The translations under genes and the position numbers were made by a program. Shown in pieces: positions 32,274 through 56,425 of a DNA stretch of 64,000 bases (position 1 is its first letter; each line of letters starts with the position of its first letter). Origin of the DNA: an uncultured delta proteobacterium. Lineage in GTDB: Bacteria > Desulfobacterota > Desulfobulbia > Desulfobulbales > Desulfurivibrionaceae. A model generated the notes under the pieces. The model saw only the letters and a list, made by a program, of their open reading frames with translations, was not told the DNA's origin and did no database searches. The stretch lies in NCBI GenBank assembly GCA_903869265.1, contig CAIPYE010000017.1:248001-312000 (forward strand), read 5' to 3'.

Positions 32274-34388
32274 ATGAAAGTCTATGACGACAAGCACATC
32301 AAGAACATCGTGTTGCTGGGCAGTGTCAAGTCCGGCAAGACAACCCTGGCCGAGACCATGGTTTTCGAGGCGGGGCTTACCAAGCGACGCGGCTCGGTCG
32401 AAGACAAGAACACCATCTCCGATTATCACCAGATCGAGCAAGAACGCGGCAACTCCGTGTACGCCACCTCCCTGCACACCGAATGGCGGGATTACAAGAT
32501 CAACATCATTGATACCCCCGGCCTGGATGATTTTGTTGGCGAGATCGTCTCCGCCCTGCGGGTGGCCGATACCTGCGTCATGCTGATCAACGTCCAGTAC
32601 GGGGTGGAGGTGGGCACCGAGCTGGTCTGGAACTCGGTGGAACGGTTCGGTAAACCCACTATCTTTGCGATCAATCAGGTGGACCACCCCAAGGCCGGTT
32701 ATGACGAAGCGGTTTTTTCCATTCAGGAGCGCTTCGGCAAGGCGGCGGTGCTTATGCAGTATCCGGTCAATCAGGGCGCGGGTTTCAACGGGATCATCGA
32801 TCTGCTCAAGATGACCATGTACCGGTTTCCGCCCGAGGGCGGCAAGCCCGAGAAAATGCCCATTCCTGAAAACGAAAAAGAGCGGGCTGAGAAGCTCCAC
32901 AACGAGTTGGTGGAAAAGGCGGCGGAAAACGATGAGGCCTTGATGGAGCTCTATTTTGAGAAGGGCAGTCTCGATGAGGACGAGATGCGCATGGGACTCA
33001 AGATCGGCATGCGCAACCGGTCGCTTTTTCCGATATTCTGCCTGTCCGCCAAGCAGAACATGGGCAGCGGCCGGATGATGGGTTTCATCGACAACGTGGC
33101 GCCCACGGCCCACGAAATGCTGCCCGAGCACACCCTGGACGGCGGAGAGCTTGCCTGCGACCCGGCAGGATCCCCGGTGCTTTTTGTCTTCAAGACTTTG
33201 GTGGAGCCCTATCTCGGCAAGATCACCTTTTTCAAGGTCTGTTCCGGCGAGGTGAGCGAGGGGCAGGATCTGGTCAACTACCCGACCGGTGACACCGAAC
33301 GTCTGACCCAGCTGTTCATCATGGATGGCAAGGAGCGCAATCAGGTGAAAAAGCTCTCTGCCGGGGACATTGGCGCGACCTTGAAGATGAAAACCACCAA
33401 CACCAACCACACTCTGCACGGCAAGGACAAACGGGTGGGGTTGGCGCCCATCGAGTTTCCCGAACCACGCATCCGTTCGGCAATCGTGGCCAAGGAGAAA
33501 AAGGACGACGAAAAACTGGGCGAGGCCCTGCGGGACATGCAGACCGAGGACCAGACCCTCAAGGCCGAGTTTGCCTCGGAGGTGAAGCAGCTGATCCTCT
33601 GGGGCCAGGGCGAGCTGCACCTGCAGGTGGCCCGCTGGCGTCTGGAGCATGTCTACGGAATCAAGACGGAATTTGTGGAGCCGAAGATCCCCTACCGGGA
33701 GACGATCCAGAAACCGGCCACCGCCATGTACCGCCACAAGAAACAGTCCGGAGGCTCGGGCCAGTTCGCCGAGGTGCACCTGCGCATCGAGCCCCATGTG
33801 GAAGGAGCGCCCGACCCTACCGATCTCAATGTCCGCGGCAAGGAGGAGATCGATCTGCCCTGGGGCGGCAAGCTGGTATTTTATAACTGCATCGTGGGCG
33901 GGGTTATCGACGGCAAGTACCTGCCCTCCATCCAGCGGGGGGTCATGGAGAAGATGCAGGAAGGGCCCATGACCGGCTCCCATGTGCGGGACGTGCGGGT
34001 CATGGTCTTTGACGGCAAGATGCACGCGGTGGATTCCAACGACATCTCGTTTAAGATCGCCGGGGCCCAGGCCTTCAAGGAGGCCTTCAAGCAGGCGGAC
34101 CCGCTCATCCTTGAGCCCATCTACGAGATGGATATCATGGTGCCGGAAGAGGTGATGGGCGAGGTGATGGGTGATCTCCAGACGCGGCGGTCAATCATCA
34201 GCGGCATGGAAACCCAGGGGAGGTATCAGGTGATCCGGGCCTTGACCCCGCTGGCCGAGCAGTACAAATACACCACCGCCCTCAAGTCCCTTACCCAGGG
34301 GAGGGCCAGCTTCAAGCGGCGGTTCAAGGAGTACGCGCCGGTGCCTTTTGAGGTGCAGAAGGGGCTGGCTGCCAAAAACGCTGAATGA
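32274..34388 (+). CDS. Elongation factor G-like GTPase with altered G motifs
   Basis: A 704-residue protein with the five-domain EF-G layout and a good GAGAGGTGG ribosome site. The P-loop GSVKSGKT (16-23) is intact. DTPGLDDF has Leu84 where canonical EF-G has the catalytic His (DTPGHVDF), and the base-specificity motif is NQVD (134-137) instead of NKxD. The C-terminal domains retain GGSGQFAEVHLRIEP and YEMDIMVPEEVMGEVMGDLQ with RRSIISGMETQG, so ribosome binding is likely. It belongs to the EF-G2-like branch, whose role differs from ordinary translocation. It stands alone, without tuf or str-operon genes. Confidence 0.88.
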   Translation: MKVYDDKHIKNIVLLGSVKSGKTTLAETMVFEAGLTKRRGSVEDKNTISDYHQIEQERGNSVYATSLHTEWRDYKINIIDTPGLDDFVGEIVSALRVADTCVMLINVQYGVEVGTELVWNSVERFGKPTIFAINQVDHPKAGYDEAVFSIQERFGKAAVLMQYPVNQGAGFNGIIDLLKMTMYRFPPEGGKPEKMPIPENEKERAEKLHNELVEKAAENDEALMELYFEKGSLDEDEMRMGLKIGMRNRSLFPIFCLSAKQNMGSGRMMGFIDNVAPTAHEMLPEHTLDGGELACDPAGSPVLFVFKTLVEPYLGKITFFKVCSGEVSEGQDLVNYPTGDTERLTQLFIMDGKERNQVKKLSAGDIGATLKMKTTNTNHTLHGKDKRVGLAPIEFPEPRIRSAIVAKEKKDDEKLGEALRDMQTEDQTLKAEFASEVKQLILWGQGELHLQVARWRLEHVYGIKTEFVEPKIPYRETIQKPATAMYRHKKQSGGSGQFAEVHLRIEPHVEGAPDPTDLNVRGKEEIDLPWGGKLVFYNCIVGGVIDGKYLPSIQRGVMEKMQEGPMTGSHVRDVRVMVFDGKMHAVDSNDISFKIAGAQAFKEAFKQADPLILEPIYEMDIMVPEEVMGEVMGDLQTRRSIISGMETQGRYQVIRALTPLAEQYKYTTALKSLTQGRASFKRRFKEYAPVPFEVQKGLAAKNAE

Positions 34389-34742
34389 TCTGGGAGGACG
34401 GCAGGGCAGGCAGCAAAAAAAAGCCGCCGGACTTGCGTCCGACGGCTTCTCTCGAGGGGGATGGGAGAGATTTGCCTGTGTAATACAAGGGGGCAAACTG
34501 CGGCGGATGGCGACAGGCGAGCGCCAAGCGTTTAGTAATTTCGTTGAATGCTTAATAGCTCTATTTTAGTTTTTTTGCAACTATTTTTTTGTGCGTATTT
34601 TTGGGGGGTTGGCAGGGCTGAAATGCCGGTGGGCTGAGATCAAATGATCTCGTGTACCAATGGAATGTGAACGAGACCCTGATTTTTCAAAGGGGACTTC
34701 GAGTCTCTCATTGCAGGCCAGAGCAACGGCGACCCATCGAGC
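34389..34742. other. Intergenic stretch between the EF-G-like gene and the GAF gene
   Basis: About 350 bp with no supported gene. It contains the terminator at 34414-34448, an AT-rich segment around 34540-34600, and a near-perfect palindrome, GAGATCA/TGATCTC, at 34636-34651. Confidence 0.6.
34414..34448 (-). terminator. Rho-independent terminator (leftward)
   Basis: A 12-bp hairpin, AAGCCGCCGGAC with its near-complement GTCCGACGGCTT, carries one mismatch and a TTGC loop. On the minus strand it is followed by eight T. It would end transcripts coming from the molybdoenzyme/GAF operon and may also stop EF-G transcripts weakly in the other direction. Confidence 0.65.
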
Positions 34743-36401
34743 TTACCGCAATTCAACAATTTTGGTTTTGCCGACATAATCCCGGCTTTCAAAGCCAGTC
34801 ATGGCTGTCATCTTCCTGGTAAGCTCGCCAATATTCTTAAGATTTCTGACAATGGTCTGAACGTCTTTTGCCAATTCCCCGGATTCCAGTTCATCCTCAA
34901 GCAACTGAGCTGTACCCAGAGCAGCAAAGAGGGGTGAATTGATCTCATGGGCCACCGCGCCGGCCAATTCCACGACCCCCTGCAGCTTGACCCGCTCCAG
35001 ATGCTCCTGTTCCAACTGCCGCTTGGCGGTGATGTCACGGATAACCTCGATCACATATTCAATCTCGCCTCTCTCATCAAGCATGGGTGAGGCCGTACGT
35101 TCATACCAGTGCGGGCCGTCATCCTTGTTCAGTTGATGTTCTTGGCTGGCGGCCTGGCCGGTTGCCAGCACCTGTGTCACCGGACAATCTTTAGCCCCTG
35201 AATCCTGATCCTGCCACAGGGAATGATAGTCAGCACCAAGAAGCTCCTGTTCCTCCTTTCCCATGGCCGTGAGAAAAACTCGATTGGCCAGGACCAGATG
35301 GAGTTCCTTGTCCACCACCAGGAGTTGCGGGCGAATACAGTTGAGAATGTTGGCGAGAAACCGTTCACTTTCTTCAACCTGATTAAAAAGTAAGGCTATC
35401 TTTTGATAGGTTCTGGCATTCTGGATGGCGGTCCCGCTTATTTCGGCGACGGTGACCGCAAAGTTGATCTCGCTGCTGGTAAAACAACGGTTGCTGTTCG
35501 AGAGAATGCGGATGATGCCGATAACCTCCCTTTTGACCTTAATAGGAACTGCGAGCAGGGATTTTATCCCCTCCTTTTCCATGTCGTTTTTGTACAACAC
35601 CCGTTCATCCCTGCTCACATCATAAATGGAAACCGGTTCGCCGGCGAGGGCAACGGCGATGTTCCTTTCGCCTTCCACCTGTCCCCGGCGCAAATATTCC
35701 GCGGAGATGCCATGGGAGGCCACCAGTTCCAGATGATTTGTCTCCGGTCGCAAAAGGCGGATGGTGCAGGCCTTGCAGCCTATGCTGCTGGGTAGCCGTT
35801 CAACAATGGTATTCAATAACGCATCAAGGTCCAGGGTGGAGTTGACCAGGGTTGAGATGTCCTGCACCTCTTTCATGAAATCAATCTGGTTTTCCATCTC
35901 CTTGAACATGTGGCCATTGGAGATGGCAATGCCGACTTGTTCGGCTAATGCCATGGAAAAAGAGATTTCTTCCGAGGTAAAGATTCTGTTGCTTCGGGTC
36001 AGCAGACGAAGGATGCCGATGACCGATCCCTGAAACAGAATGGGCAGAGTGAGCACGCTCTTGATCCCCTCCTGACTGACCAGAGCCCGGTCACTAAAAT
36101 GGAGGTCCTGGTCTACGTCGGTTTTGGCCACAGGGTGCCCCAAATTGATCATGGCCATGGTCTCTTCGGTGTCAATATGGCTGCGGGAGAGGTATTCCAG
36201 AGAGAGGCCGTGGGCTGCGCCCATGACAAAGGTGTTGGTCGAGGGGTCGAGCAACCGAATGGTTGCCGCGTCGATATCCAACAGGCCGGGCAATTCCTTG
36301 ACAATGGTGTCCATCACCTGCTGGTGATCAAGCACCATACTGATCAGTTTGGTCACCTTCTGAAAGACCTTGAGATATTTCAGTTCGTTGATCTGTTTCA
36401 T
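34743..36401 (-). CDS. GAF-GAF-PAS-HisKA protein lacking the kinase ATPase domain
   Basis: A 552-residue cytoplasmic sensor. Two GAF domains (about 25-170 and 195-340) share the pattern GIKSVLTLPILFQGSVIGIL / GIKSLLAVPIKVKREVIGII. A PAS domain (about 350-470) with PAC follows. A HisKA-like helical hairpin carries AGAVAHEINSPLFAALGTAQ with the phosphorylatable His. The protein then stops about 70 residues later (GKTKIVELR) without any N, G1 or G2 box, so it cannot bind ATP by itself. It may be phosphorylated in trans by the kinase at 39760 or act as an inhibitor. It follows the molybdoenzyme gene by 55 bp. Confidence 0.8.
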   Translation of the reverse strand: MKQINELKYLKVFQKVTKLISMVLDHQQVMDTIVKELPGLLDIDAATIRLLDPSTNTFVMGAAHGLSLEYLSRSHIDTEETMAMINLGHPVAKTDVDQDLHFSDRALVSQEGIKSVLTLPILFQGSVIGILRLLTRSNRIFTSEEISFSMALAEQVGIAISNGHMFKEMENQIDFMKEVQDISTLVNSTLDLDALLNTIVERLPSSIGCKACTIRLLRPETNHLELVASHGISAEYLRRGQVEGERNIAVALAGEPVSIYDVSRDERVLYKNDMEKEGIKSLLAVPIKVKREVIGIIRILSNSNRCFTSSEINFAVTVAEISGTAIQNARTYQKIALLFNQVEESERFLANILNCIRPQLLVVDKELHLVLANRVFLTAMGKEEQELLGADYHSLWQDQDSGAKDCPVTQVLATGQAASQEHQLNKDDGPHWYERTASPMLDERGEIEYVIEVIRDITAKRQLEQEHLERVKLQGVVELAGAVAHEINSPLFAALGTAQLLEDELESGELAKDVQTIVRNLKNIGELTRKMTAMTGFESRDYVGKTKIVELR

Positions 36402-36412
36402 GTGACCGATAT

Positions 36413-36452
36413 AAGGGGGCAGGGAGGAGAAAAAAATGCTCCCCGCCCCCTT
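36413..36452 (-). terminator. GC-rich hairpin between the molybdoenzyme and GAF genes
   Basis: AAGGGGGC-GGGAGGAG pairs imperfectly with CTCCCCGCCCCCTT across a loop containing seven A (plus strand). On the minus strand only TTATAT follows the stem, so termination is likely partial. It may stabilise the 3' end of the molybdoenzyme message and reduce expression of the GAF protein. Confidence 0.4.
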
Positions 36453-36456
36453 TCCT

Positions 36457-39306
36457 TTAGGCCTTCCTGATATTGGTCTTGATATATTTCAACGGCGGGG
36501 TACCCGTCCATTTGCAGGCCACGTTGGGCGGCATCAGGATGTTGGTGTTAAATCCCTTGAATTGCGGATACTTCGGGTCTCCCTCCAGCCCGTATTTATG
36601 GCCAAACCCACCGGCGGTGCCCAGCACTCCCTGGCGGATATCCCAGGTGACAAAGGCCTTTGCCTTGATCTCGCCCCAGGGCGAGGTGATCACCACCTCA
36701 TCGCCGGTGGCAATCCCCAGGTTTTTGGCATCCACATAGTTGATCCACACCGGGTTGGTGCCGCACTGTTTCATCAGGGCTACATTCCAGAAGGTGCTGG
36801 TATGCTCATGTTCCAGTACCCGGAAATATCCGGTGATCATGGGGAATTCCGCATCCGGCTGGAGTTCCGGCCAATCCGCCCAAGGGTCCTTGTAGTCCGG
36901 CAGGCCGTCAACCCCGTTTTCTTCGGCCAGGGGATTCATGAAATTGTACTTCCCGGTCTTGGTGCTGCCGGAAGCGCCATATCCAGCCGGCGGATTCATG
37001 GAGCCCCAGGTTTTGTATTTGTAAAACTCCTGTTCGTTGGTGACGTAATAGCCGACCTTGCGCAGTTCCTCCAGGGTGATCGCCTGGTTGCGCATCTGGT
37101 TTTCCATGTACTCTTCTTCGCTTTTCCAGGGGAAGTATTCGCCAAAGCCAAGCCGTCTGGCCAGTTCCGAGAAGATCGAGACAATGGATCTGCATTGGTA
37201 CATGGGGTTGATGGCCTTCTGTCCCAGGGAGAGAAATGCCTCGTACATCCAGTCGGAAACCACCCGGCTCTGCTCAAGATAGGTGCAGTCCGGCAGCACC
37301 ACGTCACAAAGTTCGGTGGTGTTGGACATGAAGCAGTCAATGGAACAGCTGAAATCCAGCTTTTCGATGGCCCGCTTGATGGACGGTTCATTGCCGCAGG
37401 ACATGACAGGGTTGCCGAAGTAGCAGATCATGGCCTTGAGTTTGCCCTCGTCCACGTCCTTTTCAAAATAGCCGGGGATCCAGCCGCTCCAGAGATGACC
37501 CTTGTCCAGTTTGACCTTGGCCGCGTTGTTCGGGGGCTTGGGTTGATCGTCTGCCCAAGGGGAGGCGAGTTTGAACTTGCTGATCAGCGCCGGGCCGCCG
37601 GGGGCGTCGAAGCACCCCATCAGCGCATTCAAGGCGATAAGGGCCTGAACCGCATGCAGGGTGTTGGCGCCCTGGGAAACGCCGGTCCAGGAGTTGGCCC
37701 CGGCAGCAGGCGCGGCGGCGGCAAACTCATGGGCCAGTCGCGTGATGGTCTCGGCTGAGACTCCGCAGATTTCCGCGGCCCATTCGGGGGTGCGGGCAAT
37801 GCCATCCTCCTGACCCAGCAACCGTTTCTGGAAGGCCTCAAAACCATAGGTCCAATTTTCGATAAACTCCTTATTGTACAACCCTTCCTTGACCATGACA
37901 TAACACATGCCCATGGCCATGGCGCCGTCGGTGCCGGGTTTGATCGCGATCCATTCCGTGGCGATGCCCGCGGTTTCGCAACGGCGGGGATCAATCACCA
38001 CCAGCTTGGCTCCGTTCTTGACCGCCTGCTTCAGCAGGGTGACCTTGCGCTGTCCGGCAGAGGTGGCCAGCTCGTTGATGCCGAAGAGCAGGATGAACTG
38101 GGAGTTGGCGTAGTCAATCCAGGGCCGTTTTTCGCTGTAATTTTTTTCGTTGGCCATCCGGGCCGGATTGTCGCACATCTGGCGATGGCTGACCTTGTTG
38201 GGAGTGCCGTAGGCCGCCATTACCGCGTCATGGCACCACATGTTGAAGTCATTGCCCTGATGGAAGCCGACCTGAACCGGATCGACCTTTTTCAGGGCTT
38301 GCACCGTGCGTTCCATGGCCTCGTCCCAGCTTGCCTTGCGGAATCTGCCATTTTCCTTGATCAGCGGGGTCTTCAGACGGTAGGCGCTGTAGGTGTTGTT
38401 GTGGGCATTGGCCCCCTTGATGCAGAGGCGGCCGCCACCCTTGGGGTCTCCGGGCAGCCCCTTGCAACCGGTGATGATATTGTCCTTGACTCTGACCTCC
38501 TGGCCGCAGAGGCCAAGGCAGATGTAGCAATGGGAATTGACGCTGCGCATCTTATCCGGCGCTTCGGCGCCATCGGCTATGGTGATGTACTCTTCCCCCA
38601 GATCCAGGGAGGCGATCGCCGCCCCCATCTGTTCCAGGATGAAAACATAATCATGGCTGAAGGCTTGTTCGGAGAGCATGGAGAAGGAGAACATCCGCTC
38701 GTTGAAGAGATAACTCATGGTCAACTCGGAGAGGCCGCGATAGAACTCGGTCTTGGCGGCACTGGCCAGCACCGCGCAGAATTCCACGGTCCAGCCCATG
38801 AGGTGGTTGCGCAGGAAGGTGAACTGCTGTTCCTGGCCCTCATCGTTATAGGCCGCTCGCTCCGCCAGGTAGCGCATGAATTCCAGCTCCACCGCGATAT
38901 GGTCATCAAGATCAGAATAATCGGGATTTTTGTGGACTCCGGCCTTGTTCAGGGCGGCGCGGATGGCGACCACCGGTTCCTGCATGACCAGCGGTTCCCT
39001 GGTGGTGTAGCAGGATTCGTAGGGAAAGGCCGGATTGTTGCCGGCGTTCAAGAAAAGGTCGGCGTATTCGTAGCGCAGTTCGCTGAAGACCTGCTCCGCA
39101 GTTCCTGCTTGCAAACCTGAAGCCATCTTGGCGAGACCGGAACAGAAGTCCTGGATGGTGCAGTCCTTTTGCAAGGCCGTGATATGCTCTAAAAATTTGG
39201 AGCTCTGCATCTGTTGTATCAGCGGCAGGGAAAGCTCGTCCCGATACATGGCCGAGAGAAATTGATACATTCTTGCCCTGGCCAGATTTATTGCCTTGAT
39301 GTCCAT
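36457..39306 (-). CDS. TorD-like chaperone fused to a molybdopterin oxidoreductase
   Basis: A 949-residue fusion. Residues of about 1-225 are a TorD/DmsD-type maturation chaperone (ELRYEYADLFLNAGNNPAFP, DDHIAVELEFMRYLAERAAY). From about 255 a complete DMSO-reductase-family enzyme follows. Its [4Fe-4S] ligands are Cys260, Cys263, Cys267 and Cys295 (CYICLGLCGQEV, GGRLCIKG), and Cys378 in SHRQMCDNPAR is the probable Mo ligand, as in polysulfide/thiosulfate/tetrathionate-type enzymes. There is no Tat signal, so it is cytoplasmic. No electron-transfer or membrane-anchor subunit is adjacent. AGAGGG precedes the ATG. It lies downstream of a response regulator and kinase that probably control it. The substrate is unknown. 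Confidence 0.88.
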   Translation of the reverse strand: MDIKAINLARARMYQFLSAMYRDELSLPLIQQMQSSKFLEHITALQKDCTIQDFCSGLAKMASGLQAGTAEQVFSELRYEYADLFLNAGNNPAFPYESCYTTREPLVMQEPVVAIRAALNKAGVHKNPDYSDLDDHIAVELEFMRYLAERAAYNDEGQEQQFTFLRNHLMGWTVEFCAVLASAAKTEFYRGLSELTMSYLFNERMFSFSMLSEQAFSHDYVFILEQMGAAIASLDLGEEYITIADGAEAPDKMRSVNSHCYICLGLCGQEVRVKDNIITGCKGLPGDPKGGGRLCIKGANAHNNTYSAYRLKTPLIKENGRFRKASWDEAMERTVQALKKVDPVQVGFHQGNDFNMWCHDAVMAAYGTPNKVSHRQMCDNPARMANEKNYSEKRPWIDYANSQFILLFGINELATSAGQRKVTLLKQAVKNGAKLVVIDPRRCETAGIATEWIAIKPGTDGAMAMGMCYVMVKEGLYNKEFIENWTYGFEAFQKRLLGQEDGIARTPEWAAEICGVSAETITRLAHEFAAAAPAAGANSWTGVSQGANTLHAVQALIALNALMGCFDAPGGPALISKFKLASPWADDQPKPPNNAAKVKLDKGHLWSGWIPGYFEKDVDEGKLKAMICYFGNPVMSCGNEPSIKRAIEKLDFSCSIDCFMSNTTELCDVVLPDCTYLEQSRVVSDWMYEAFLSLGQKAINPMYQCRSIVSIFSELARRLGFGEYFPWKSEEEYMENQMRNQAITLEELRKVGYYVTNEQEFYKYKTWGSMNPPAGYGASGSTKTGKYNFMNPLAEENGVDGLPDYKDPWADWPELQPDAEFPMITGYFRVLEHEHTSTFWNVALMKQCGTNPVWINYVDAKNLGIATGDEVVITSPWGEIKAKAFVTWDIRQGVLGTAGGFGHKYGLEGDPKYPQFKGFNTNILMPPNVACKWTGTPPLKYIKTNIRKA

Positions 39307-39323
39307 GGGTAATTGCCCTCTCT

Positions 39324-39710
39324 TTATACGTTGATGCTGCTTTTCTTGTCCTTTGCTTTCAAGACCTTCTCCACCTTTTCTTCCAACTCTTCCCGATCAA
39401 TGGGCTTGACACAGTATTCGTCCGCCCCGAGGCTTATCGCCTCACGGGCCGTTCCCACTGTCGGGTAGCCGGTGAGCATGATGGCCCGCATCTCCGGAGT
39501 CTCGGTCTTGAGCAGGGCAAGCACCTCGATGCCGTTCATCTTTTTCAATTTGATGTCAAGAATGGCCAGATCCACTTTGTTGGCCTTTGCATAGGCAATC
39601 GCCTCGTCCTCCTCGGTGAACGTGTGCACGTTGTGGCCTTTTTTAGTTAAAATCTTGCCAATGAGCACAGTTGCATCCTGCACATCATCCAATGCTAATA
39701 TCTCAGCCAT
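39324..39710 (-). CDS. Single-domain response regulator, module A
   Basis: A 128-residue CheY-like receiver with no output domain: MAEILALDDVQDATVLIG supplies the acidic pocket, the acceptor Asp lies in LAILDIKLKKMNG, and the Lys lies in CVKPIDREELEE. GGAGG precedes the ATG. It lies 17 bp before the TorD-molybdoenzyme gene and 49 bp after its likely kinase. Its closest relative in the window is the regulator at 47784. With no DNA-binding domain, it must act by protein contact, perhaps with the GAF-HisKA protein or the sigma-54 activator. Confidence 0.9.
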   Translation of the reverse strand: MAEILALDDVQDATVLIGKILTKKGHNVHTFTEEDEAIAYAKANKVDLAILDIKLKKMNGIEVLALLKTETPEMRAIMLTGYPTVGTAREAISLGADEYCVKPIDREELEEKVEKVLKAKDKKSSINV

Positions 39711-39759
39711 GGTCTACCTCCAATAAGTTGTCTGACTATCTGTCTTCCATCCACATAGA

Positions 39760-41328
39760 CTATTCGCGTACACTCGCTGTCTCAACCAGCATGACCGGAA
39801 GCTTGACGTGAAACGCCGCTCCCGGACTATTTTCTCCGGATGGCCTGTTTGCAACCGGGCTTTCCACCTCTATCCGTCCACCATGATCCTGAATGATCCC
39901 GTATGAAACCGAGAGCCCCAGGCCGGTTCCTTTGCCCACGGATTTGGTGGTGAAAAATGGATCAAAAATCCTGGTCTGGATATTTTCCGGGATGCCATGC
40001 CCGGTATCCCGCACCGTGGCCACCACCTCATGGCTGCCGGGATCATAGCGGGTGCTCAAGGTCAGCTCGCCAGATCCCTGTTTTTCCATGGCATGGTGGG
40101 CATTGTTGACCAGATTGACAAAGACCTGCCGCAACCTTTCAGTATCACCGACAATGGGCGGCAGATCCTGGGCAAAATCCCGATGCACGCTGATATGATC
40201 CATGTTCAAGGAGTGCTGGGTCACGGCAAGCACATCCATCAGGATTTCATTGATGGAGATATCTTCCCGGGCGCTTTCCGATTGGCGGGAAAATTTGAGC
40301 AGATCAGCCACGATTTTTCGGCAGGCCTTGGTCTGGCGTTCGATGATGGCCAGGTTCTGGGCCTGTTCACTTTCCGGGGGGAAATCATCCATCATCAACT
40401 GAGAGTAGCCAAGAATGACCCCCAGAGGAGTATTGATCTCATGGGCGACCCCGGCAGCCATTTGTCCCACCGAGGCCATCTTCTCACTGGCGGACAGTTG
40501 CGCCATCATGGTCTTGATTCGGGTCAGGTCCTTGGCAATGCCTTCGCAGCCGCAGAACTGGTTTTTATCGTCGGACACAGCCGTGGCGGAGAGAAGAACC
40601 GAGATGGTGGAGCCGTCCGCCTTGGCAAACTCCACCTCCAGATCTTCTATAAAGCCCTGGGAAAGCAGGGTGTTATAGTAGCTCTCCCAATCGCTTTCAT
40701 GCTTGAAGATAGTCTCGAGGTTCAGGGCCGGGGCACCTTCGCTTGGATAGCCCAGCATCTTGAAACCGGCGCTGTTCATGGTCAGCAGATGATTTTTTGG
40801 ATCACTGAAGTAGACCATGTCCTTGGAGTTGTTAAACAGATTCCGGAATTTTTTTTCTGAGGCCGAAAGCTCAAGGGTTCTTTCCGCAACCTTTTCTTCC
40901 AGGTGCAGATTCATCCCCTGTAGCTGGTCGGCTGCGTTTTCCAGTTGATCGTAGGCTTCTTTGAGACTTTTGGCCTTTCGGTTGATCGCCTGGTATCCCT
41001 CAATGCCTTTATGGTAATAGAGCGTGACTGCCGCCAGCGAGGTCATGAGCAGGGTGTTGGTGCCCCCGGAAACCGGAGAGAAGATTTGCCATAATTCATG
41101 ATTCCCGGAAAACAGCAGGATATGTTTGAGCAGATGCCCTGTGGCCCGGGAGATGGCAAAGGCGCCAAGGGTCAGGCAAAAGTAGAAGAGAAAGCCCCAG
41201 AGGAAATTTTCCGGCTGTTTCTTGGTCAGCAGCCAGGCATAGCGCAGGGAAAGAAACGAAAAAACAATGATAAAACCCGATCCGACCATGTCGGTGACAA
41301 TGGCTGGAGCAAGGGGAAGATTGTTCAT
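39760..41328 (-). CDS. Multi-pass membrane histidine kinase with PAS, module A
   Basis: A 522-residue sensor kinase. The N-terminal 125 residues have about four membrane helices with a conserved [20 protein letters not shown] stretch. A coiled linker ([20 protein letters not shown]), a PAS domain and a kinase core follow. The core has the H-box [18 protein letters not shown], the N-box [10 protein letters not shown], and the G-boxes DTGHGIPE and [10 protein letters not shown]. The membrane part is not a domain I can name; its paralogue at 46205 shares the SR-x-x-GHLL motif. It overlaps the upstream small membrane gene as ATGA, so the two are probably partners. Confidence 0.9.
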
Positions 41329-41819
41329 TCGGTTTCCGCCTTATCCGAGGAGCGATACAGGGTGCGCAGGCTCAGGAAGAGGAAAAACAGGGCCGGGACG
41401 CTGAGCAGGTGGTCCAGGGTGGCACAGAAATAGATCAGTTTGACCCCGGATATCGGCCCCATGATTTGCGAGGAAAAGTATCCCGAAGAACGCATGATCT
41501 CGGAGTTATCAATGTGAAATCCCAGCCAGTGGCCGGAAAAGGCCACGACATTCCAGAGGATCATCAAGGCGCAGAAGGTCTGAAGATAACGCCAGCCCTT
41601 GCCGGGAAATGCGTTCCTCCCCACATCCCAGAAGAGATAGCCCAGAGCTGCCGCATAAAAAATATGGGCCATCTGGTGCACATAGATGCCCTCCGGTTCG
41701 CCATGGGATTGTAATGCCCAGGCCTGATCCGGAGCAAGAAGCAATGCCACGGGAAGAAATAGGGCGAGCGCATTGAGGTTTTTAAGTGGGTTCATAGGGC
41801 TGACAAGATTGTATGCCAT
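41325..41819 (-). CDS. His-rich small membrane protein, module A
   Basis: A 164-residue membrane protein. An N-terminal signal peptide ends near DQAWA, followed by LQSHGEPEGIYVHQMAHIFY and about four hydrophobic helices. Histidines recur in or near helices (SGHWLGFHID, TLDHLLSVPALFF). These positions are kept in the paralogue at 45729, which suggests heme, metal or quinone binding. AGAGGG supports the ATG at 41819. It overlaps the kinase gene by 4 bp; I infer that the protein is the input subunit of the kinase. No family name is known to me. Confidence 0.78.
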   Translation of the reverse strand: MAYNLVSPMNPLKNLNALALFLPVALLLAPDQAWALQSHGEPEGIYVHQMAHIFYAAALGYLFWDVGRNAFPGKGWRYLQTFCALMILWNVVAFSGHWLGFHIDNSEIMRSSGYFSSQIMGPISGVKLIYFCATLDHLLSVPALFFLFLSLRTLYRSSDKAETE

Positions 41820-41891
41820 GCAACGACCCTCTCCCTGTCCTGAAAAGTTGCCGACTGTAAAGTCCTGTCTTTTGATGGGAACCAAACCCGA

Positions 41892-41926
41892 TTCCCACGG
41901 CAAGTAGAAAGGGTTGCGCCGTGGAA
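41892..41926. repeat. Inverted repeat upstream of the module A operon
   Basis: TTCCCACGGC (41892-41901) and GCCGTGGAA (41918-41926) form a 9-bp stem with one bulge and a 16-base loop. It lies about 75 bp upstream of the small membrane gene, in the only gap where the promoter of that operon can lie. It is either an operator or a hairpin at the end of the TauE/SafE transcript; no T-run follows it. Confidence 0.4.
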
Positions 41927-41948: not shown

Positions 41949-42338
41949 TTAATAAACACCCAGCAGGTTCAAAGCGAGCAGCAACAGTCCTCCGCAGGCA
42001 ACGCGTTTCACCACCTGCGGGCTCACCCGCTTGGCGATTTGCGGGCCGAGGTAGCCGCCCAGCAGGGCTGCGGGAAACATGGCCAGAAAGAGCAGCAGGT
42101 CGAAGTTGCCGAACTGCATGTGTCTTATGGAACCCATGGCCGTACTGAAGAAGATGGCCAACAGCGAGCTGCCGACCACAATGTACATGGGCAGCCCTAG
42201 GGCGACGGTCATCAGCGGCACCATGAACGGGCCGCCGCCGAAGCCGAACATCGAGGACAGGATGGAAATGAGAAAGCCGCCGAGACAGCCGACAAACATG
42301 TTGACTTGAAATTCATGACCCCAAAAATCTACTTTCAT
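41949..42338 (-). CDS. TauE/SafE-family permease, C-terminal-type half
   Basis: A 129-residue protein with about four helices that corresponds to only half of a normal TauE/SafE permease. GFLISILSSMFGFGGGPFMV carries the family glycine motif, followed by VVGSSLLAIFFSTAMGSIRH. The second half-permease lies 24 bp upstream in the same operon, so the two likely assemble into one transporter of sulfite, sulfonate or another organic or sulfur anion. Its open frame is intact with its own start, so this is a split gene rather than debris. Confidence 0.85.
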   Translation of the reverse strand: MKVDFWGHEFQVNMFVGCLGGFLISILSSMFGFGGGPFMVPLMTVALGLPMYIVVGSSLLAIFFSTAMGSIRHMQFGNFDLLLFLAMFPAALLGGYLGPQIAKRVSPQVVKRVACGGLLLLALNLLGVY

Positions 42339-42362
42339 AACGGATTCCTCCTGATAGTGTTG

Positions 42363-43640
42363 TTATTTCTGGTCCGTGGGACAAGCGGCGGTGCCTTCCT
42401 CGCCTTTTTTGGCACACTCTTCCGCCCGCTTCTTGAACTCTTTCAGGATGGCTTGTTCCTTCTTGTTCTTCTCAAGATAGCCAGGGGTGGTCTGCCAGAA
42501 CATCAGGCCGGACAGCACTATCAGAATCCAGCCAAAGGCGAATTTGAACTGGTCCAAAGTGATCAACTCGGTGAGCTTGGGGCCGATAAAGGCACCCACC
42601 AGCATGGCGCAGCCGACGCCGATGCCGAGCTTCCAGTTGATGAACTTGATTTTCGAGTAGTTGTAGATACCGGAACCCTGGGAGAAGAGTACTGTGGGCA
42701 TGACCGTGCCAGCCACGATGGTGTGGGGCAGAGCCGGGAAAAGTGATACCAGAATGGGGTTGAGGATGAAGCCGCCGCCCGCGCCCATCAACACGCCGAA
42801 GATAGAGATGGCCAGACAGAGGAGGAAGGGGTAGACGAGGTTGATGCTCGTGCCGGCTGCTTTGAGGTAAACGGTGGGGAAGGAGACGTTGTTGTCAAAG
42901 GTAGCGATCTCACTCTTAACCTTCTTGACCGTTTCCTTGTCGCCATCCTTGATGCGTTCGGTGACTGCGGTGACGGTGACGTTGTACTTGCCCGGGGCCA
43001 GACCTGTACGCAACTTCATCTTGGCGGTGTAGGCGCCATCGGGTTGGGTTTCGACTGTGGCGGCCAGCAGCTTGTCAACACTGCGGAAACGTCCTTTTAC
43101 CAGCTTCATCGACTCGCGCTTGCTTTCTTTTTCGTCCATGGGGTCCAGCAGATCGCCGCGGGAGCCGATGATGCTGGCCATGATGCTGGCCTGATAGCGT
43201 TCAATCTTGATCTTGGCCGGCGCGCTATAGGCTGCGTCGGCGCCGATCTTCTTCAGCACTTCGGAATACTTCCAGTCCTTGCCCTCGGCCTTGGCCTTAT
43301 CGATCTCTGGCACCATCTCCTTGGGTACGAAAATCTTGTAGGCCGCAGGCATCTCCTGGGTCAGATAAAACATGTAAGGAATCTTGCCGGTTTTTGGGTC
43401 TTTCTTGCTGTCGAAGCGGTTGGCTCGCACCTGTTTGTCAGCGGAATAAACCTCGACATAGACCTGGGCGCCGGCCGGGGCCTGACCGCTGACGGTGATC
43501 TCGCCGCCGTTGGAAAGCGAGGTCTTGTCGAGAGTAATGGTTGGAGCAGGGGCCTCTTCTTTGGCCTGTGCCTGCGGGGTGATGGGCAAGGCCATCATCA
43601 CCAGAGCGAGTAACGGCAACATACTGAACTTGACTTTCAT
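42363..43640 (-). CDS. TauE/SafE half-permease with large exported N-terminal domain
   Basis: A 425-residue protein. A signal peptide (MKVKFSMLPLLALVMMALPI, cleavage near AQA) is followed by about 270 residues predicted to be periplasmic. This part includes Ig-like strands (LDKTSLSNGGEITVSGQAP, TGLAPGKYNVTVTAV) and a Lys-rich segment. A four-helix TauE/SafE half with GVLMGAGGGFILNPILVSLF comes next, and the tail is charged with two cysteines. AGGAGGTGG marks the ATG at 43640. The periplasmic part may capture the substrate for the permease. The 24-bp link to the second half supports a split transporter. Confidence 0.83.
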   Translation of the reverse strand: MKVKFSMLPLLALVMMALPITPQAQAKEEAPAPTITLDKTSLSNGGEITVSGQAPAGAQVYVEVYSADKQVRANRFDSKKDPKTGKIPYMFYLTQEMPAAYKIFVPKEMVPEIDKAKAEGKDWKYSEVLKKIGADAAYSAPAKIKIERYQASIMASIIGSRGDLLDPMDEKESKRESMKLVKGRFRSVDKLLAATVETQPDGAYTAKMKLRTGLAPGKYNVTVTAVTERIKDGDKETVKKVKSEIATFDNNVSFPTVYLKAAGTSINLVYPFLLCLAISIFGVLMGAGGGFILNPILVSLFPALPHTIVAGTVMPTVLFSQGSGIYNYSKIKFINWKLGIGVGCAMLVGAFIGPKLTELITLDQFKFAFGWILIVLSGLMFWQTTPGYLEKNKKEQAILKEFKKRAEECAKKGEEGTAACPTDQK

Positions 43641-44090
43641 ACCATCCACCTCCTGTCTGAAATGAAAAAGTTGTAAAACACGGCTTCTTCCATAAATTCC
43701 CCCTGTTGTGCCGTTGCACCTCCTTAACTGTGTGGTTTTCATTGCCCGACAAGCACGGACGGTTGATGTGCAAGAACGTTCGAGCCTGATGCGCGGTGGT
43801 TGATGCCGTGGAGGGTTGCAGAGCCCTCTTTTTAATTATAGCACAGCAATAACAATGCCAATTCAGCGATTCGGAGAGGAGATTGTGTTATCTGGCTGAG
43901 TTAGTGTGGATGTTATTATTTTTTAAGGCATTCGGTAGGGCGGAAAATGACCAGGAAATGGGCCGGGAAGTGCAGTAAAAAATATGCGCCGCCTCTTTTT
44001 TGCGGCACGGCGATTTTGCCGGAAAGATGGCAGAGGGTGTAGGCTCGGAGAATGTTTTGGGAGACGTTTGTCTGACTTGCTTCGGAATGG
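43641..44090. other. 450-bp intergenic region upstream of the split permease
   Basis: No supported gene. It holds the sigma-54-type site at 43845-43860 and leaves a leader of about 190 bp before the permease start. An open frame ending in the sigma-54 activator gene (43916-44119) lacks coding character. Confidence 0.6.
43845..43860 (-). promoter_or_regulatory. Candidate sigma-54 (-24/-12) promoter for the split permease
   Basis: The minus-strand 16-mer TGGCATTGTTATTGCT has the essential GG and GC at exactly the -24/-12 spacing and matches TGGCA at the left and TTGCT at the right of the consensus. It points toward the permease genes, and the adjacent gene upstream encodes a sigma-54 activator. 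Confidence 0.6.
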
Positions 44091-50357: not shown

Positions 50358-51065
50358 TCACGGTTCTGCCCGCAATCGGTACCCCACTCCGGATTCAGTG
50401 AGTAGAAGGCTGGGGCGGGATGGGTCACTCTCGATTTTGTGCCGGAGGTTGCTGATGTTCACCCGCAGTACATGCGGTTGCTCCAGGTGGGAGCTCCCCC
50501 AGATCCGGCTGAGTAGCTGGCGGTGGGTCAGCACCTTACCGGCGTGGGTCACCAGTATCCGGAGGATTTCGTACTCGGTGGGGGTGAGCTGCACCTCTTG
50601 GTCGGCCACCCGCACCACGCGTCGGGCAAGATCCACCTCAAGTCCGCCGCTGCGGAAGACCGGCTCCGGGGCCTGGCCGACGATTCGCCTCAACGACCCC
50701 CGGATGCGGGCCAGCAGCTCCGGCACGCCAAAAGGCTTGGTCAGGTAGTCATCCGCGCCGGCATCCAGGGCGGCGACCTTATCGTCCTCCCGTTCCCGCA
50801 CCGAGAGCACGATGATCGGGGCGGGCGACCATTCGCGCAGCCGGCGGATCACCTCCACCCCGTCCAGGTCGGGCAGCCCCAGGTCGAGCAGAATCAGGTC
50901 CGGTCGTACTGCCGCAGCGGCGGCCAATCCGAGGCTGCCGTTTTCCGCCAAATGCACAACAAAACCGGAGCTTTCGAGCACGGTGGCAAGCAACCTCCGG
51001 ATGGCGGCCTCGTCATCCACCACCAGGATACGGGGCGGATGCTCGCCGGGCTTCAGCTCATCCAT
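50358..51065 (-). CDS. kdpE: KdpE response regulator
   Basis: A 235-residue OmpR/PhoB-type regulator of potassium uptake. The receiver has its acceptor Asp in LILLDLGLPDLDG and Lys in YLTKPFGVPELL. The winged-helix domain has LTPTEYEILRILVTHAGKVL and HVLRVNISNLRHKIE. The ATG at 51065 overlaps the end of kdpD by 8 bp; a frame starting 11 codons earlier is less likely. When phosphorylated by KdpD it should activate the kdpA promoter, where phased CTTGATA repeats are present. Confidence 0.95.
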   Translation of the reverse strand: MDELKPGEHPPRILVVDDEAAIRRLLATVLESSGFVVHLAENGSLGLAAAAAVRPDLILLDLGLPDLDGVEVIRRLREWSPAPIIVLSVREREDDKVAALDAGADDYLTKPFGVPELLARIRGSLRRIVGQAPEPVFRSGGLEVDLARRVVRVADQEVQLTPTEYEILRILVTHAGKVLTHRQLLSRIWGSSHLEQPHVLRVNISNLRHKIESDPSRPSLLLTESGVGYRLRAEP

Positions 51066-53754
51066 GGGCAGAATCCTCTGTCTGGGGAGGCGGGGCAAGG
51101 GGCAGCCTGATCGTGATGGTCAGGCCGCCGCCGGGAGTGATGGCGGCGTTGATTTTGCCGCCGTGGGCCTGAACAAACCCCTTGCAGATGGAAAGGCCGA
51201 GCCCTGTGCCGCGCGCCCCTTCCGGTGCCGGCACCCGGTGGAACTTGTCAAATATCCGTTCCAGGTCTGCTTCGGCAACGCCGGGGCCATGGTCGATTAT
51301 CTCCATGACCAGCCACGCCCGGTCGGTCCGGGCATTGATCCCGAGGGGTTGATCCTGCGGCGAATACTTGAGGCTGTTGTCCAGCAGGTTGACCAGCACC
51401 TGGATCATGCAGCCCATGTCCAGCATCACCAGCGGCAGGTCCGGGGGGAGGTGCACCGCAATCTCCCGTTTCCCCAGGCGTGGATCGAGCACCGACAGGG
51501 CGCAGCCGATCAGCTCCTCCACGTCGCAGGGGGTATATTTCAGCCGCACCGCCCCTGCTTCTAACCGGGTCATGTCCAGCAGGTTGCCGACAAAGCGGTT
51601 CAGCCGGGCCGCCTCCTCGCAGGCCGTGGCCAGCAGCTCGTTCCTGGCCGTCTCGTTCAACCCCTCTTGGTCCCGCAAGCTGCTCAGCGCTCCGGTGATG
51701 GAGGCCAGCGGGGTGCGCAGATCGTGGGAGATGGAGTTCAATAGTGCCCGCTCCAAGGTTTCCCTGGCCTGAAGGATCTGGGCCTGCTCCGCCTGCTGGG
51801 AGAAGCGCACCCGCTCCAGGGCCATGGCGGTCTGGCTGGCAAAGGCGTCGAGCAGAAGCCGGTGCGGCTGGGAGTTGTAGTCGGTCGGATCTGCCATCCT
51901 CACCCCCAATACGCCGAGGATGTTCGCCGAAGTCTTGAGCGGCAGGTAGAGCAGGGTGGCCGAGCCAAGGGTGGTGGAGCCGCGCCCCGCCTCCTGGTGA
52001 TTGCGGAAGGTCCAGTCCGCCACGGCCCGCTCTTTGAGGTCGAGATCCAGTTTCTCGCTGGCGGAGATGATCTTGAGTTGCTCCCCATCGGCCAGGAAGA
52101 CCACGATCTCGGCCTTCAGGCTTTCCCGAATATTGCGGAGCACCGCGCCGGTGACGGCCACCAGATCGGCGGCCCCGGCCAGGTCGCGGCTCAGGTAATA
52201 GAGGCTGGCGGTCTGCACCTCGCGCAACCGCAGCGATTCCGCCCGTTCGCGGCTTCTGGCGACCTGGGTGCTGATCACCAGCCCAACGGTGAGGAAGCCG
52301 GCAAAGGTCACCAGATATTCAACGTCGGACACGGCCAAGCTGAACCGGGGGGCGACAAAGAAAAAATCAAAAGCAAGCACCCCAAGGAAGGCGGTGAGCA
52401 CAGCCGGTTGCAGCCCGAGCCGGACTGCGGCCAGCACCACTGCCAAAAGGTAGAACATCACCGTGTTGGTGGGCGAGAAAAAAGGTTGGACCAGACCGCA
52501 GAGCAGGGTCGTTCCGGCCACCAGGGCCATGGCCATTGCGTGTCCGGCCCAGGGGATGGCCCGGATAGGACGGCGCTGTTGTGTTGCCGTGCGCCGTTCG
52601 CCGAGGCTCATGCTGACCACGTAGACGTCGATCTCGTCGCTTGCCCGGATGATCTGGTCCACGATGGGTGGGCGCAGCAGCTCGCGCCAGCGGGGCCGGG
52701 TGGGTTTCCCCACCACGATCTTGGTGATGTTGTGGCGGCCGGCGTAATCGGCCACCGCCTCGGCCACGGTGCTTGCGGTGACCGAGGCCACTGTGGCGCC
52801 CATGCTCTCGGCCAGCCTGAGATCGCGCCAGATCCGTTCCCGGTTTTCGCGGCTGAAGCGGCCGGTATCCGGGGTTTCGATGTACACGGCATGCCAGGGG
52901 GCCTTCATCTCGTCGGCCAGCCGCCGGGTGGTGCGCATCAGCTTCTCGCCGAATGGGCTGCCGCTGATGCAGACCAGCAGCCGCTCCGCCACGGAGCGGG
53001 GTCCCGAGAGGGCGCGGGTCTCCATGTAGGAGCGCATCTGGTCGTCCACCCGGGACGCGGCGCGGCGCAGGGAAAGCTCCCGCAGGGCGATGAGGTTGCC
53101 GGGCTGGAAGAATTTTTCCATGGCCCTGGCCGCCTGCTCGGGGATGTAAATCTTGCCTTGGCCCAACCGTTCCAGCAGCTCGTCCGGCGGGATGTCCACC
53201 AGCTGGATCTCGGCGGCCAGATCGAGCAGGAGGTCCGGCACGGTCTCTCGCACCACCACCCCGGTGATCTTCTCCACCACGTCGTTTAAGCTCTCGAAAT
53301 GCTGGACATTGACCGTGGTGTAGACATCGATGCCTGCGGTCAGCAGTTCCTGCACGTCCTGCCAACGTTTTTCATGCCGGGAGCCCGGCGCGTTGGTGTG
53401 GGCCAGTTCGTCCACCAAAGCGATCTGGGGATGTCTTTGCAGCACCGCGTCGAGATCCAGCTCGAAGAGCGGTACCCCCTGGTATTCCAGGCGCAGCTTG
53501 GGGATGGTGGTAAGCCCTTCCAGCAGGGCGTCGGTCTCGCCCCGGCCATGGGATTCCACGTAGGCCGCCACCACGTCCCGCCCTTCCCGCTTACGCTGGC
53601 GGGCCGCGCTCAGCATGGAGAAGGTTTTGCCCACCCCGGCCGCGTAACCGAGGAAGATCTTGAGCCTGCCCCGGTCGGCCTGGGCTTCCTCGGCCTGGGC
53701 CAGCTTGAGCATGGCTTCCGGCGAAGGCCGGAGCTCGTCGCTGTCGTCGGTCAC
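51058..53754 (-). CDS. kdpD: KdpD sensor histidine kinase
   Basis: An 898-residue membrane sensor of potassium limitation, full family length. The N-terminal KdpD domain has the Walker-type LGYAAGVGKTFSMLSAARQR and DELAHTNAPGSRHEKRWQDV. A universal-stress-like domain follows (CISGSPFGEKLMRTTRRLAD), then four helices around 400-500 and a GAF-like domain. The kinase core has SISHDLRTPLASITGALSSL with the phospho-His, NLLDNSLKYSPQ, DHGPGVAE and GTGLGLSICKGF. It overlaps kdpC by 4 bp (ATGA) and kdpE by 8 bp, so the last three genes are tightly coupled. Confidence 0.96.
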   Translation of the reverse strand: MTDDSDELRPSPEAMLKLAQAEEAQADRGRLKIFLGYAAGVGKTFSMLSAARQRKREGRDVVAAYVESHGRGETDALLEGLTTIPKLRLEYQGVPLFELDLDAVLQRHPQIALVDELAHTNAPGSRHEKRWQDVQELLTAGIDVYTTVNVQHFESLNDVVEKITGVVVRETVPDLLLDLAAEIQLVDIPPDELLERLGQGKIYIPEQAARAMEKFFQPGNLIALRELSLRRAASRVDDQMRSYMETRALSGPRSVAERLLVCISGSPFGEKLMRTTRRLADEMKAPWHAVYIETPDTGRFSRENRERIWRDLRLAESMGATVASVTASTVAEAVADYAGRHNITKIVVGKPTRPRWRELLRPPIVDQIIRASDEIDVYVVSMSLGERRTATQQRRPIRAIPWAGHAMAMALVAGTTLLCGLVQPFFSPTNTVMFYLLAVVLAAVRLGLQPAVLTAFLGVLAFDFFFVAPRFSLAVSDVEYLVTFAGFLTVGLVISTQVARSRERAESLRLREVQTASLYYLSRDLAGAADLVAVTGAVLRNIRESLKAEIVVFLADGEQLKIISASEKLDLDLKERAVADWTFRNHQEAGRGSTTLGSATLLYLPLKTSANILGVLGVRMADPTDYNSQPHRLLLDAFASQTAMALERVRFSQQAEQAQILQARETLERALLNSISHDLRTPLASITGALSSLRDQEGLNETARNELLATACEEAARLNRFVGNLLDMTRLEAGAVRLKYTPCDVEELIGCALSVLDPRLGKREIAVHLPPDLPLVMLDMGCMIQVLVNLLDNSLKYSPQDQPLGINARTDRAWLVMEIIDHGPGVAEADLERIFDKFHRVPAPEGARGTGLGLSICKGFVQAHGGKINAAITPGGGLTITIRLPLAPPPQTEDSAHG

Positions 53755-54317
53755 GATTGGGAATCCAGCGCCCGGTTGAGCAGCAGCACGTTGACCCGTG
53801 GCTCTCCCAATAGACCCATTTGACGGCCCTCGGTGTGGATGTCTACCAACCCGGCGACGGCATCCTCTGAAAGATTGCGCATCTTGGCGATACGCGGGAT
53901 CTGAAGCCGGGCTGCTTCGAGGGAGATATGAGGATCAAGGCCGCTGGCCGAAGCCAGCACCAAGTCGGCGGGGATGGGGCCGGTAACACCGGTGACCCGC
54001 AGGGCTTCGACCCGTTCCGCCACGGTGGCAAGAAAGGCCGGATTGCTGGGGCCGTTGTTGGAGCCGCCCGAGGCCATGGGATTATAGGCAAACTCGGCGG
54101 TGGCCGAGGGCCGGGGCCAGAAGTAGTGTGACTCGGTGAAGGGCTGGCCGATGAGTTCCGAACCGACCGCTTGGCCGTTGACATCGGTGATCAGGCTGCC
54201 GTTTGCCTGGTGTGGGAAAACGGCCTGGGCGATCCCGGTGACCACGGCCGGATAGAGCCCGCCGCAGAGTACGGTGAACAACAGGCACATCAGAATGGCT
54301 GGTTTCAGTTCTTTCAT
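53751..54317 (-). CDS. kdpC: Potassium-transporting ATPase subunit KdpC
   Basis: A 188-residue single-helix subunit that stabilises the KdpFABC complex and helps potassium binding. The N-terminal helix (ILMCLLFTVLCGGLYPAVVT) is followed by QAVFPHQANGSLI and FWPRPSATAEFAYNPMASGG. VASASGLDPHISLEAA-like sequence appears as LASASGLDPHISLEAARLQI, and VNVLLLNRALD ends the protein; all are family hallmarks. It lies 34 bp after kdpB. No kdpF-like peptide is found before kdpA. Confidence 0.96.
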   Translation of the reverse strand: MKELKPAILMCLLFTVLCGGLYPAVVTGIAQAVFPHQANGSLITDVNGQAVGSELIGQPFTESHYFWPRPSATAEFAYNPMASGGSNNGPSNPAFLATVAERVEALRVTGVTGPIPADLVLASASGLDPHISLEAARLQIPRIAKMRNLSEDAVAGLVDIHTEGRQMGLLGEPRVNVLLLNRALDSQS

Positions 54318-54351
54318 GGTTTGGTTCTCCGCATGTCATCGGGATAAATCA

Positions 54352-56421: not shown

Positions 56422-56425
56422 GGTT

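What the first reader, a model, noticed from the sequence alone, without database searches (positions are those of the whole stretch)
36457..39306. TorD chaperone covalently fused to a cytoplasmic molybdopterin oxidoreductase
Maturation chaperones are normally separate proteins that bind Tat-exported molybdoenzymes. Here a complete TorD-like domain precedes a Cys-ligated, [4Fe-4S]-bearing enzyme with no Tat signal and no adjacent FeS or membrane subunit. The substrate and electron partner are unknown. Self-chaperoning would be a new maturation logic.
Basis: partly seen in the sequence, partly recalled or inferred. Interest (0 to 1): 0.75.

Follow-up and report, generated by a model that had tools for sequence, protein, structure and literature searches.

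The report
Enzyme with built-in maturation chaperone
A molybdenum/tungsten-type enzyme of sulfur-cycling bacteria carries its own assembly helper (a TorD chaperone domain) as part of the same protein, and this arrangement is conserved across a whole enzyme subfamily, so the helper probably works from within rather than as a separate protein.

Summary
A single 949-codon ORF on the MINUS strand (36457-39306) joins a complete TorD/NarJ-type chaperone domain (residues about 1-205) through a variable linker (206-252) to a Cys-ligated, one-[4Fe-4S] DMSO-reductase-superfamily enzyme (253-949), with no Tat signal. It is not a frameshift or missed stop: 27 full-length homologues (48-90% identical) carry all four Pfam domains in one frame. 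Across Desulfobacterota the split is clean. TorD-profile hits of 140 bits or more lie in fused genes; hits below 86 bits are stand-alone TorDs. Conversely, all 11 sampled genes with this catalytic domain are fused. The fusion therefore defines a monophyletic subfamily, outside PhsA/PsrA, formate dehydrogenase and acetylene hydratase, with an invariant HRxMCDN ligand motif. Both domains are under purifying selection. In this genome the gene arrived horizontally, in a Desulfocapsa-type sensor/regulator cassette, exactly where same-genus genomes have a cytoplasmic two-subunit molybdoenzyme. Best explanation: a soluble cytoplasmic enzyme matured in cis by its own TorD domain; substrate probably a reduced sulfur compound (weak). 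Self-chaperoning is inferred, not shown; structure prediction failed. I found no description of this fusion in the papers searched. New variant of a known kind.

The parts
36457..39306 (-). TorD-molybdopterin oxidoreductase fusion gene, 949 aa
   Evidence: single ORF; 27/27 homologues carry all four Pfam domains
38692..39306 (-). TorD chaperone domain, residues 1-205, with the D135-H136 motif that aligns with TorD/DmsD
   Evidence: PF02613 E 4e-29; profile vs 1n1c E 9e-21
38551..38691 (-). variable interdomain linker, residues 206-252
   Evidence: mean identity 32% across A3 for residues 206-255 vs 55% (TorD) and 71% (catalytic); no conserved internal Met start
38386..38550 (-). [4Fe-4S] domain, C260-x2-C263-x3-C267-x27-C295, followed by K297
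   Evidence: PF04879; all invariant
37156..38379 (-). molybdopterin oxidoreductase domain, residues 310-717; C378 (nt 38173-38175) is the presumed Mo/W ligand in the motif HRxMCDN
   Evidence: PF00384; column alignment with PsrA, acetylene hydratase, FDH, NapA
36484..36825 (-). molybdopterin dinucleotide-binding domain, residues 828-941
   Evidence: PF01568
39324..39710 (-). single-domain response regulator immediately upstream
   Evidence: PF00072; 87-95% identical and adjacent in Desulfocapsa-type loci
39760..41328 (-). PAS histidine kinase
   Evidence: conserved next to the fusion
41325..41903 (-). small protein without a Pfam match, start overlapping the kinase, conserved in the cassette; presumed membrane/sensor partner
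34743..36401 (-). GAF-GAF-PAS-HisKA protein without an ATPase domain, downstream of the fusion
   Evidence: about 552 aa in most relatives
34613..41894 (.). acquired segment: same-genus genomes match on both sides but not inside, where they hold RR-MopB706-FeS150 instead
41949..43742 (-). TauE/SafE-type exporter encoded as two ORFs (42363-43742 and 41949-42338), native flank
   Evidence: same-genus identity 80-91%

Best explanation
A soluble cytoplasmic bis-molybdopterin (Mo or W) oxidoreductase that carries its own TorD chaperone in cis. Shown: the two parts are one protein, both are intact and under purifying selection, and this catalytic subfamily was never found without the TorD domain. 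Inferred: while the chain folds, the tethered TorD domain binds the apo catalytic domain, holds the cofactor channel open for bis-PGD insertion, and then docks aside on the variable linker. Because the enzyme is not exported, no signal-peptide proofreading is needed; only the insertion role of TorD is retained. The mature enzyme would use one [4Fe-4S] cluster and a Cys-ligated metal, exchanging electrons with a diffusible carrier such as ferredoxin rather than a dedicated FeS/membrane subunit. Its production is presumably controlled by the adjacent histidine kinase/response regulator genes. The substrate is most likely a reduced sulfur compound (thiosulfate, polysulfide or similar); this last step is weak (about 0.3).
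For: Intact four-domain ORF in 27 homologues. One-to-one coupling: the TorD profile gives hits of 140 bits or more in fused genes and below 86 bits in stand-alone TorDs; all 11 catalytic-domain hits above 1250 bits are fused, next best unfused hit 392 bits. dN/dS 0.088 for TorD, 0.19 for the linker, 0.060 for the catalytic part. No Tat motif. In the same genome a Tat-exported molybdoenzyme with an FeS subunit has a separate TorD gene, a built-in contrast. TorD is known to help bis-PGD insertion even without a signal peptide (PMC10609526). The fusion displaced a cytoplasmic PhsA-like MopB + FeS pair at one locus beside the same TauE exporter, suggesting overlapping function. DsrA is present in the genome, and close homologues are in Desulfocapsa, a sulfur-disproportionating genus (PMC3739170).
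Against: No biochemical data. Structure predictions were too poor to show TorD docking. The TorD domain is less conserved than the enzyme (mean 55% vs 71%). Substrate evidence is only genomic context; divergent members share no conserved neighbours.
Confidence: 0.6

Rival explanations
1. The TorD domain is no longer a maturation chaperone but a permanent structural, dimerisation or regulatory module of the mature enzyme (TorD from S. massilia forms domain-swapped dimers).
For: It stays covalently attached and its conservation is lower than that of the catalytic part; dimerisation of TorD is reported (PMC10609526).
Against: The sequence features shared with chaperones (D135-H136 region, FPYxS motif) remain conserved, and TorD homologues with known roles act in maturation.
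Confidence: 0.25
2. A non-redox or carbon-substrate enzyme like acetylene hydratase: single subunit, cytoplasmic, one [4Fe-4S], Cys-ligated W.
For: Acetylene hydratase is among the best solved matches (4.5e-47; 1e-64 with the profile) and has the same lean layout with no partner subunit.
Against: The tree does not group them, and the residue after the second FeS cysteine, catalytic Asp13 in acetylene hydratase (role from own knowledge), is Leu, Asn or Gly here. The profile scores PsrA higher.
Confidence: 0.15
3. The TorD domain of the fusion acts mainly in trans on other molybdoenzymes of the cell.
For: Stand-alone TorDs act in trans; the genome has another TorD-dependent type enzyme.
Against: That enzyme has its own adjacent TorD; the fused TorD and its catalytic domain are strictly coextensive.
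Confidence: 0.07
4. Gene-calling or assembly artefact (two adjacent genes run together).
For: Long open frames in G+C-rich DNA can mimic fusions, as seen in G311 and G277.
Against: 27 homologues at 48-90% identity share the architecture, there is no conserved internal start, and codon-level selection runs through the junction.
Confidence: 0.01

Closest known systems
TorD/DmsD/NarJ maturation chaperones (REMPs, PF02613)
   Same: same domain family by sequence, full length, with the D-H motif
   Different: a separate protein in the cases reviewed (PMC4464133, PMC10609526), usually serving Tat-exported enzymes; here fused to its presumed client
Thiosulfate/polysulfide reductase catalytic subunit PhsA/PsrA
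   Same: closest curated and solved relative (NF012032 306 bits, 2vpw); Cys ligand and one [4Fe-4S]
   Different: far below the family cut-off (694), outside its clade, no Tat signal, no FeS or membrane subunit, Lys instead of Arg after the fourth FeS cysteine
MOLY cluster (MolyA, MolyB, TorD-like MolyC) proposed for sulfur disproportionation (PMC12998232)
   Same: molybdopterin oxidoreductase plus TorD in sulfur-disproportionating Desulfobacterota
   Different: three separate genes, exported; the window genome has a cluster of that layout elsewhere (C15), and the fusion is a different subfamily
Acetylene hydratase (2e7z)
   Same: lean single-subunit layout, one [4Fe-4S], Cys ligand
   Different: no TorD domain, catalytic Asp not conserved, different clade
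Mycobacterial NarX, 'fused nitrate reductase' (PMC7759655)
   Same: a precedent for fusing nitrate reductase subunit sequences (from my own knowledge, including a NarJ part)
   Different: fusion of NarGHI-like pieces without nitrate reductase activity; not this architecture; not compared here

Membership tests
TorD/NarJ chaperone family | PF02613 domain above cut-off | tested here: met
   101.8 bits vs cut-off 22.2; NCBIfam TorD equivalog NF003442 104.5 bits, below its cut-off of 132
TorD/NarJ chaperone family | separate polypeptide acting in trans | tested here: not met
   one ORF with the enzyme in 27 genomes
TorD/NarJ chaperone family | binds client and assists cofactor insertion | not testable with these tools
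   needs protein experiments; structure models failed
DMSO reductase superfamily, Cys-ligated, [4Fe-4S] type | Fe4S4, molybdopterin and dinucleotide-binding domains, FeS and ligand cysteines | tested here: met
PhsA/PsrA thiosulfate/polysulfide reductase | family model score above cut-off | tested here: not met
   306 vs 694 bits
PhsA/PsrA thiosulfate/polysulfide reductase | FeS and membrane partner subunits, Tat export | tested here: not met
PhsA/PsrA thiosulfate/polysulfide reductase | groups with PhsA/PsrA in a tree | tested here: not met
   separate 100/100 clade with a long stem; exact sister unresolved
Formate dehydrogenase alpha | family model score above cut-off | tested here: not met
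   231.6 vs 666 bits
Acetylene hydratase | catalytic Asp after the second FeS cysteine; groups with 2e7z | tested here: not met
   Leu/Asn/Gly at that column; other clade
MOLY cluster | separate MolyA, MolyB, MolyC with exported MolyA | tested here: not met
   a cluster of that layout is present elsewhere in the genome

The most novel reading that the evidence does not exclude
An obligately cis-chaperoned family of cytoplasmic Mo/W enzymes: the TorD domain has given up signal-peptide proofreading and works only as a tethered cofactor-insertion device for an uncharacterised sulfur-type activity in sulfate-reducing and sulfur-disproportionating bacteria, able to replace a conventional two-subunit molybdoenzyme by transfer of a single regulated cassette.
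Probability: 0.45. Interest if true: 0.7.

Novelty: new variant of a known kind. Interest (0 to 1): 0.55.

Why it matters
TorD-type chaperones have two roles that are hard to separate: guarding the export signal and helping insert the metal cofactor. A natural fusion to a non-exported enzyme isolates the second role in one polypeptide with fixed stoichiometry. That makes the structure of an apo-enzyme/chaperone complex, a long-standing gap, directly approachable. It also flags an uncharacterised molybdoenzyme subfamily in organisms whose sulfur disproportionation pathway is still unresolved.

Tried and rejected
Frameshift or artefact: rejected by 27 in-frame homologues. Other TorD fusions in the phylum: three candidate long ORFs (G311 786 and 577 aa, G277 593 aa) proved to be spurious open frames with TorD at the end behind its own start. 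Internal translation start giving a separate enzyme: Met253 is not conserved. Fold test: two AlphaFold jobs with the permitted 12-sequence alignments gave pLDDT 40 and 54, and Foldseek on the second gave no E below 0.001; neither supports nor refutes. Membership of PhsA, FDH or acetylene hydratase: rejected. Conserved electron partner near divergent fusions: none found; a multihaem cytochrome c, a ferredoxin-like DUF362 protein and other genes occur in single loci only. Plasmids hold only unrelated unfused enzymes of 27-28% identity. Other phyla could not be surveyed. Literature: no TorD-enzyme fusion found in seven searches or in the two reviews checked for 'fused' and 'fusion'.

Full report
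WHAT IS THERE. The finding lies on the minus strand: one ORF of 949 codons, 39306 down to 36457. The plus-strand translation of the same stretch is broken by stops. Pfam finds, in order, PF02613 (TorD/NarJ chaperone, residues 53-178), Molybdop_Fe4S4 (253-307), Molybdopterin (310-717) and Molydop_binding (828-941). The TorD region is not a fragment: a profile of it aligns over residues 3-200 with the solved TorD of Shewanella massilia (E 9e-21) and with DmsD, including the conserved Asp-His pair.

IS THE FUSION REAL. In the first scan 13 further loci encode it, most over the full length at 87-91% or 73-78% identity; two are pieces cut by contig ends in one genome. A wider set of 27 full-length members goes down to 48% identity, and each has all four Pfam domains. 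Interrupted copies are explained by contig ends, or by stops or shifts inside the catalytic domain, not at the junction. Codon analysis gives dN/dS 0.088 (TorD), 0.19 (linker) and 0.060 (enzyme). There is no conserved internal methionine in the linker.

HOW GENERAL. A profile of the TorD-plus-linker part was run over 258 genomes of the order and 395 of the phylum. Every match of 140 bits or more lies in a fused gene (about 930-1000 aa unless truncated or interrupted); every match under 86 bits is an ordinary TorD gene. The reverse search with the catalytic part alone found 11 matches above 1250 bits in the phylum sample, all fused, and nothing between that and 392 bits. A plain PF02613 search of 297 genomes showed no other TorD-enzyme fusion among the listed matches; three apparent ones were spurious open frames. 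Thus the fusion is an old, stable trait of one subfamily within Desulfobacterota. Other phyla were not surveyed.

WHAT ENZYME. The four FeS cysteines (C260, C263, C267, C295) and C378 are invariant and line up with the FeS and metal-ligand positions of PsrA, acetylene hydratase, FDH and NapA; DmsA, a Ser enzyme, and TorA, which lacks the cluster, behave as controls. The family has an invariant HRxMCDN sequence around the ligand. Best curated relatives are PhsA (306 bits, cut-off 694) and Fdh-alpha (232, cut-off 666); best solved ones PsrA, F420-dependent FDH and acetylene hydratase. In a tree with these references the fusions form a 100/100 clade with a long stem, outside the PhsA/PsrA, FDH, DmsA/TorA and acetylene hydratase groups; its exact sister is unresolved. 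The chain has no twin-arginine motif near its start and no clear membrane span, so it is most likely cytoplasmic.

SURROUNDINGS. In Desulfocapsa-type genomes the fusion sits in a fixed cassette: a sigma-54 response regulator, a small protein, a histidine kinase, a single-domain response regulator, the fusion, then a GAF-GAF-PAS-HisKA protein, often with a TauE-type exporter. More distant members have no constant neighbour and no FeS or membrane subunit beside them. The window's own genome has three other molybdoenzymes: two with an in-frame TGA (presumably selenocysteine formate dehydrogenases), and one Tat-exported enzyme with an FeS subunit and a separate TorD gene, laid out like the MOLY cluster (PMC12998232). 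It also has DsrA.

HORIZONTAL ARRIVAL. None of 16 same-genus genomes has the fusion, while genomes of another family of the order have it at 89-90% identity. The window copy falls within that family's Desulfocapsa clade (100/100 for the 11-row group). The flanks are native: EF-G on the left is 91-96% identical in same-genus genomes but only about 35% in the donor family, and the right flank matches the genus at 79-82% DNA identity from about position 41895. In all seven same-genus loci read, the interval between these flanks holds instead a response regulator and an unfused, signal-less molybdoenzyme of about 700 aa (26-27% identical); in the two read in full an FeS protein of about 150 aa follows. 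The window genome lacks a close copy of that type of enzyme (searched with a related family member). So a one-gene enzyme with its sensor genes replaced a two-gene enzyme at the same address. The direction and the functional equivalence are inference.

HOW IT MOST LIKELY WORKS. Stand-alone TorD and NarJ assist cofactor insertion, and TorD does so even without a signal peptide (PMC10609526, PMC4464133). For a non-exported enzyme only that role is needed. I therefore propose that the tethered domain binds its own apo-enzyme during folding and releases it on a flexible linker after bis-PGD insertion. This step is not shown. The electron partner is probably a soluble ferredoxin-type carrier, and the substrate a sulfur compound; both are context-based and weak.

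LIMITS. The literature library lacks most subscription journals; absence of a report there is not proof of novelty.

Noticed in passing
window 34613-41894; L161-L167: Locus-level replacement: seven same-genus genomes hold a response regulator and an unfused MopB (followed by an FeS protein where read in full) exactly where the window has the fusion cassette, between EF-G and TauE.
   Followed up: yes
window 41949-43742: The TauE/SafE-type exporter is encoded as two ORFs covering the first and second halves of the domain; the split recurs in same-genus and some other genomes, while others have one 562-aa gene, so it looks like a real split transporter.
   Followed up: partly
window 34743-36401: GAF-GAF-PAS protein with a HisKA phospho-acceptor domain but no ATPase domain; length about 552 aa in most relatives beside the fusion, so an orphan phospho-acceptor rather than a truncated gene.
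   Followed up: partly
window 32274-34388: An EF-G-like protein that is 91-96% conserved in the genus but only about 35% similar to those of other families; the genome has a second EF-G at about 32% identity.
   Followed up: no
L110 (G000:C15:314000-332000): Tat-exported molybdoenzyme, FeS subunit and separate TorD gene in the same genome, laid out like the MOLY cluster, with a possible transposase gene (343 aa, by eye) next to it.
   Followed up: partly
L171 and L172: One complete genome (G128) has an interrupted fusion reading frame and one draft genome (G122) has frameshifts inside the catalytic domain; close relatives have intact copies.
   Followed up: partly
window 51058-58213: A Kdp potassium-transport gene set (KdpA, P-type ATPase, a 188-aa ORF, KdpD) lies downstream of the region.
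   Followed up: no
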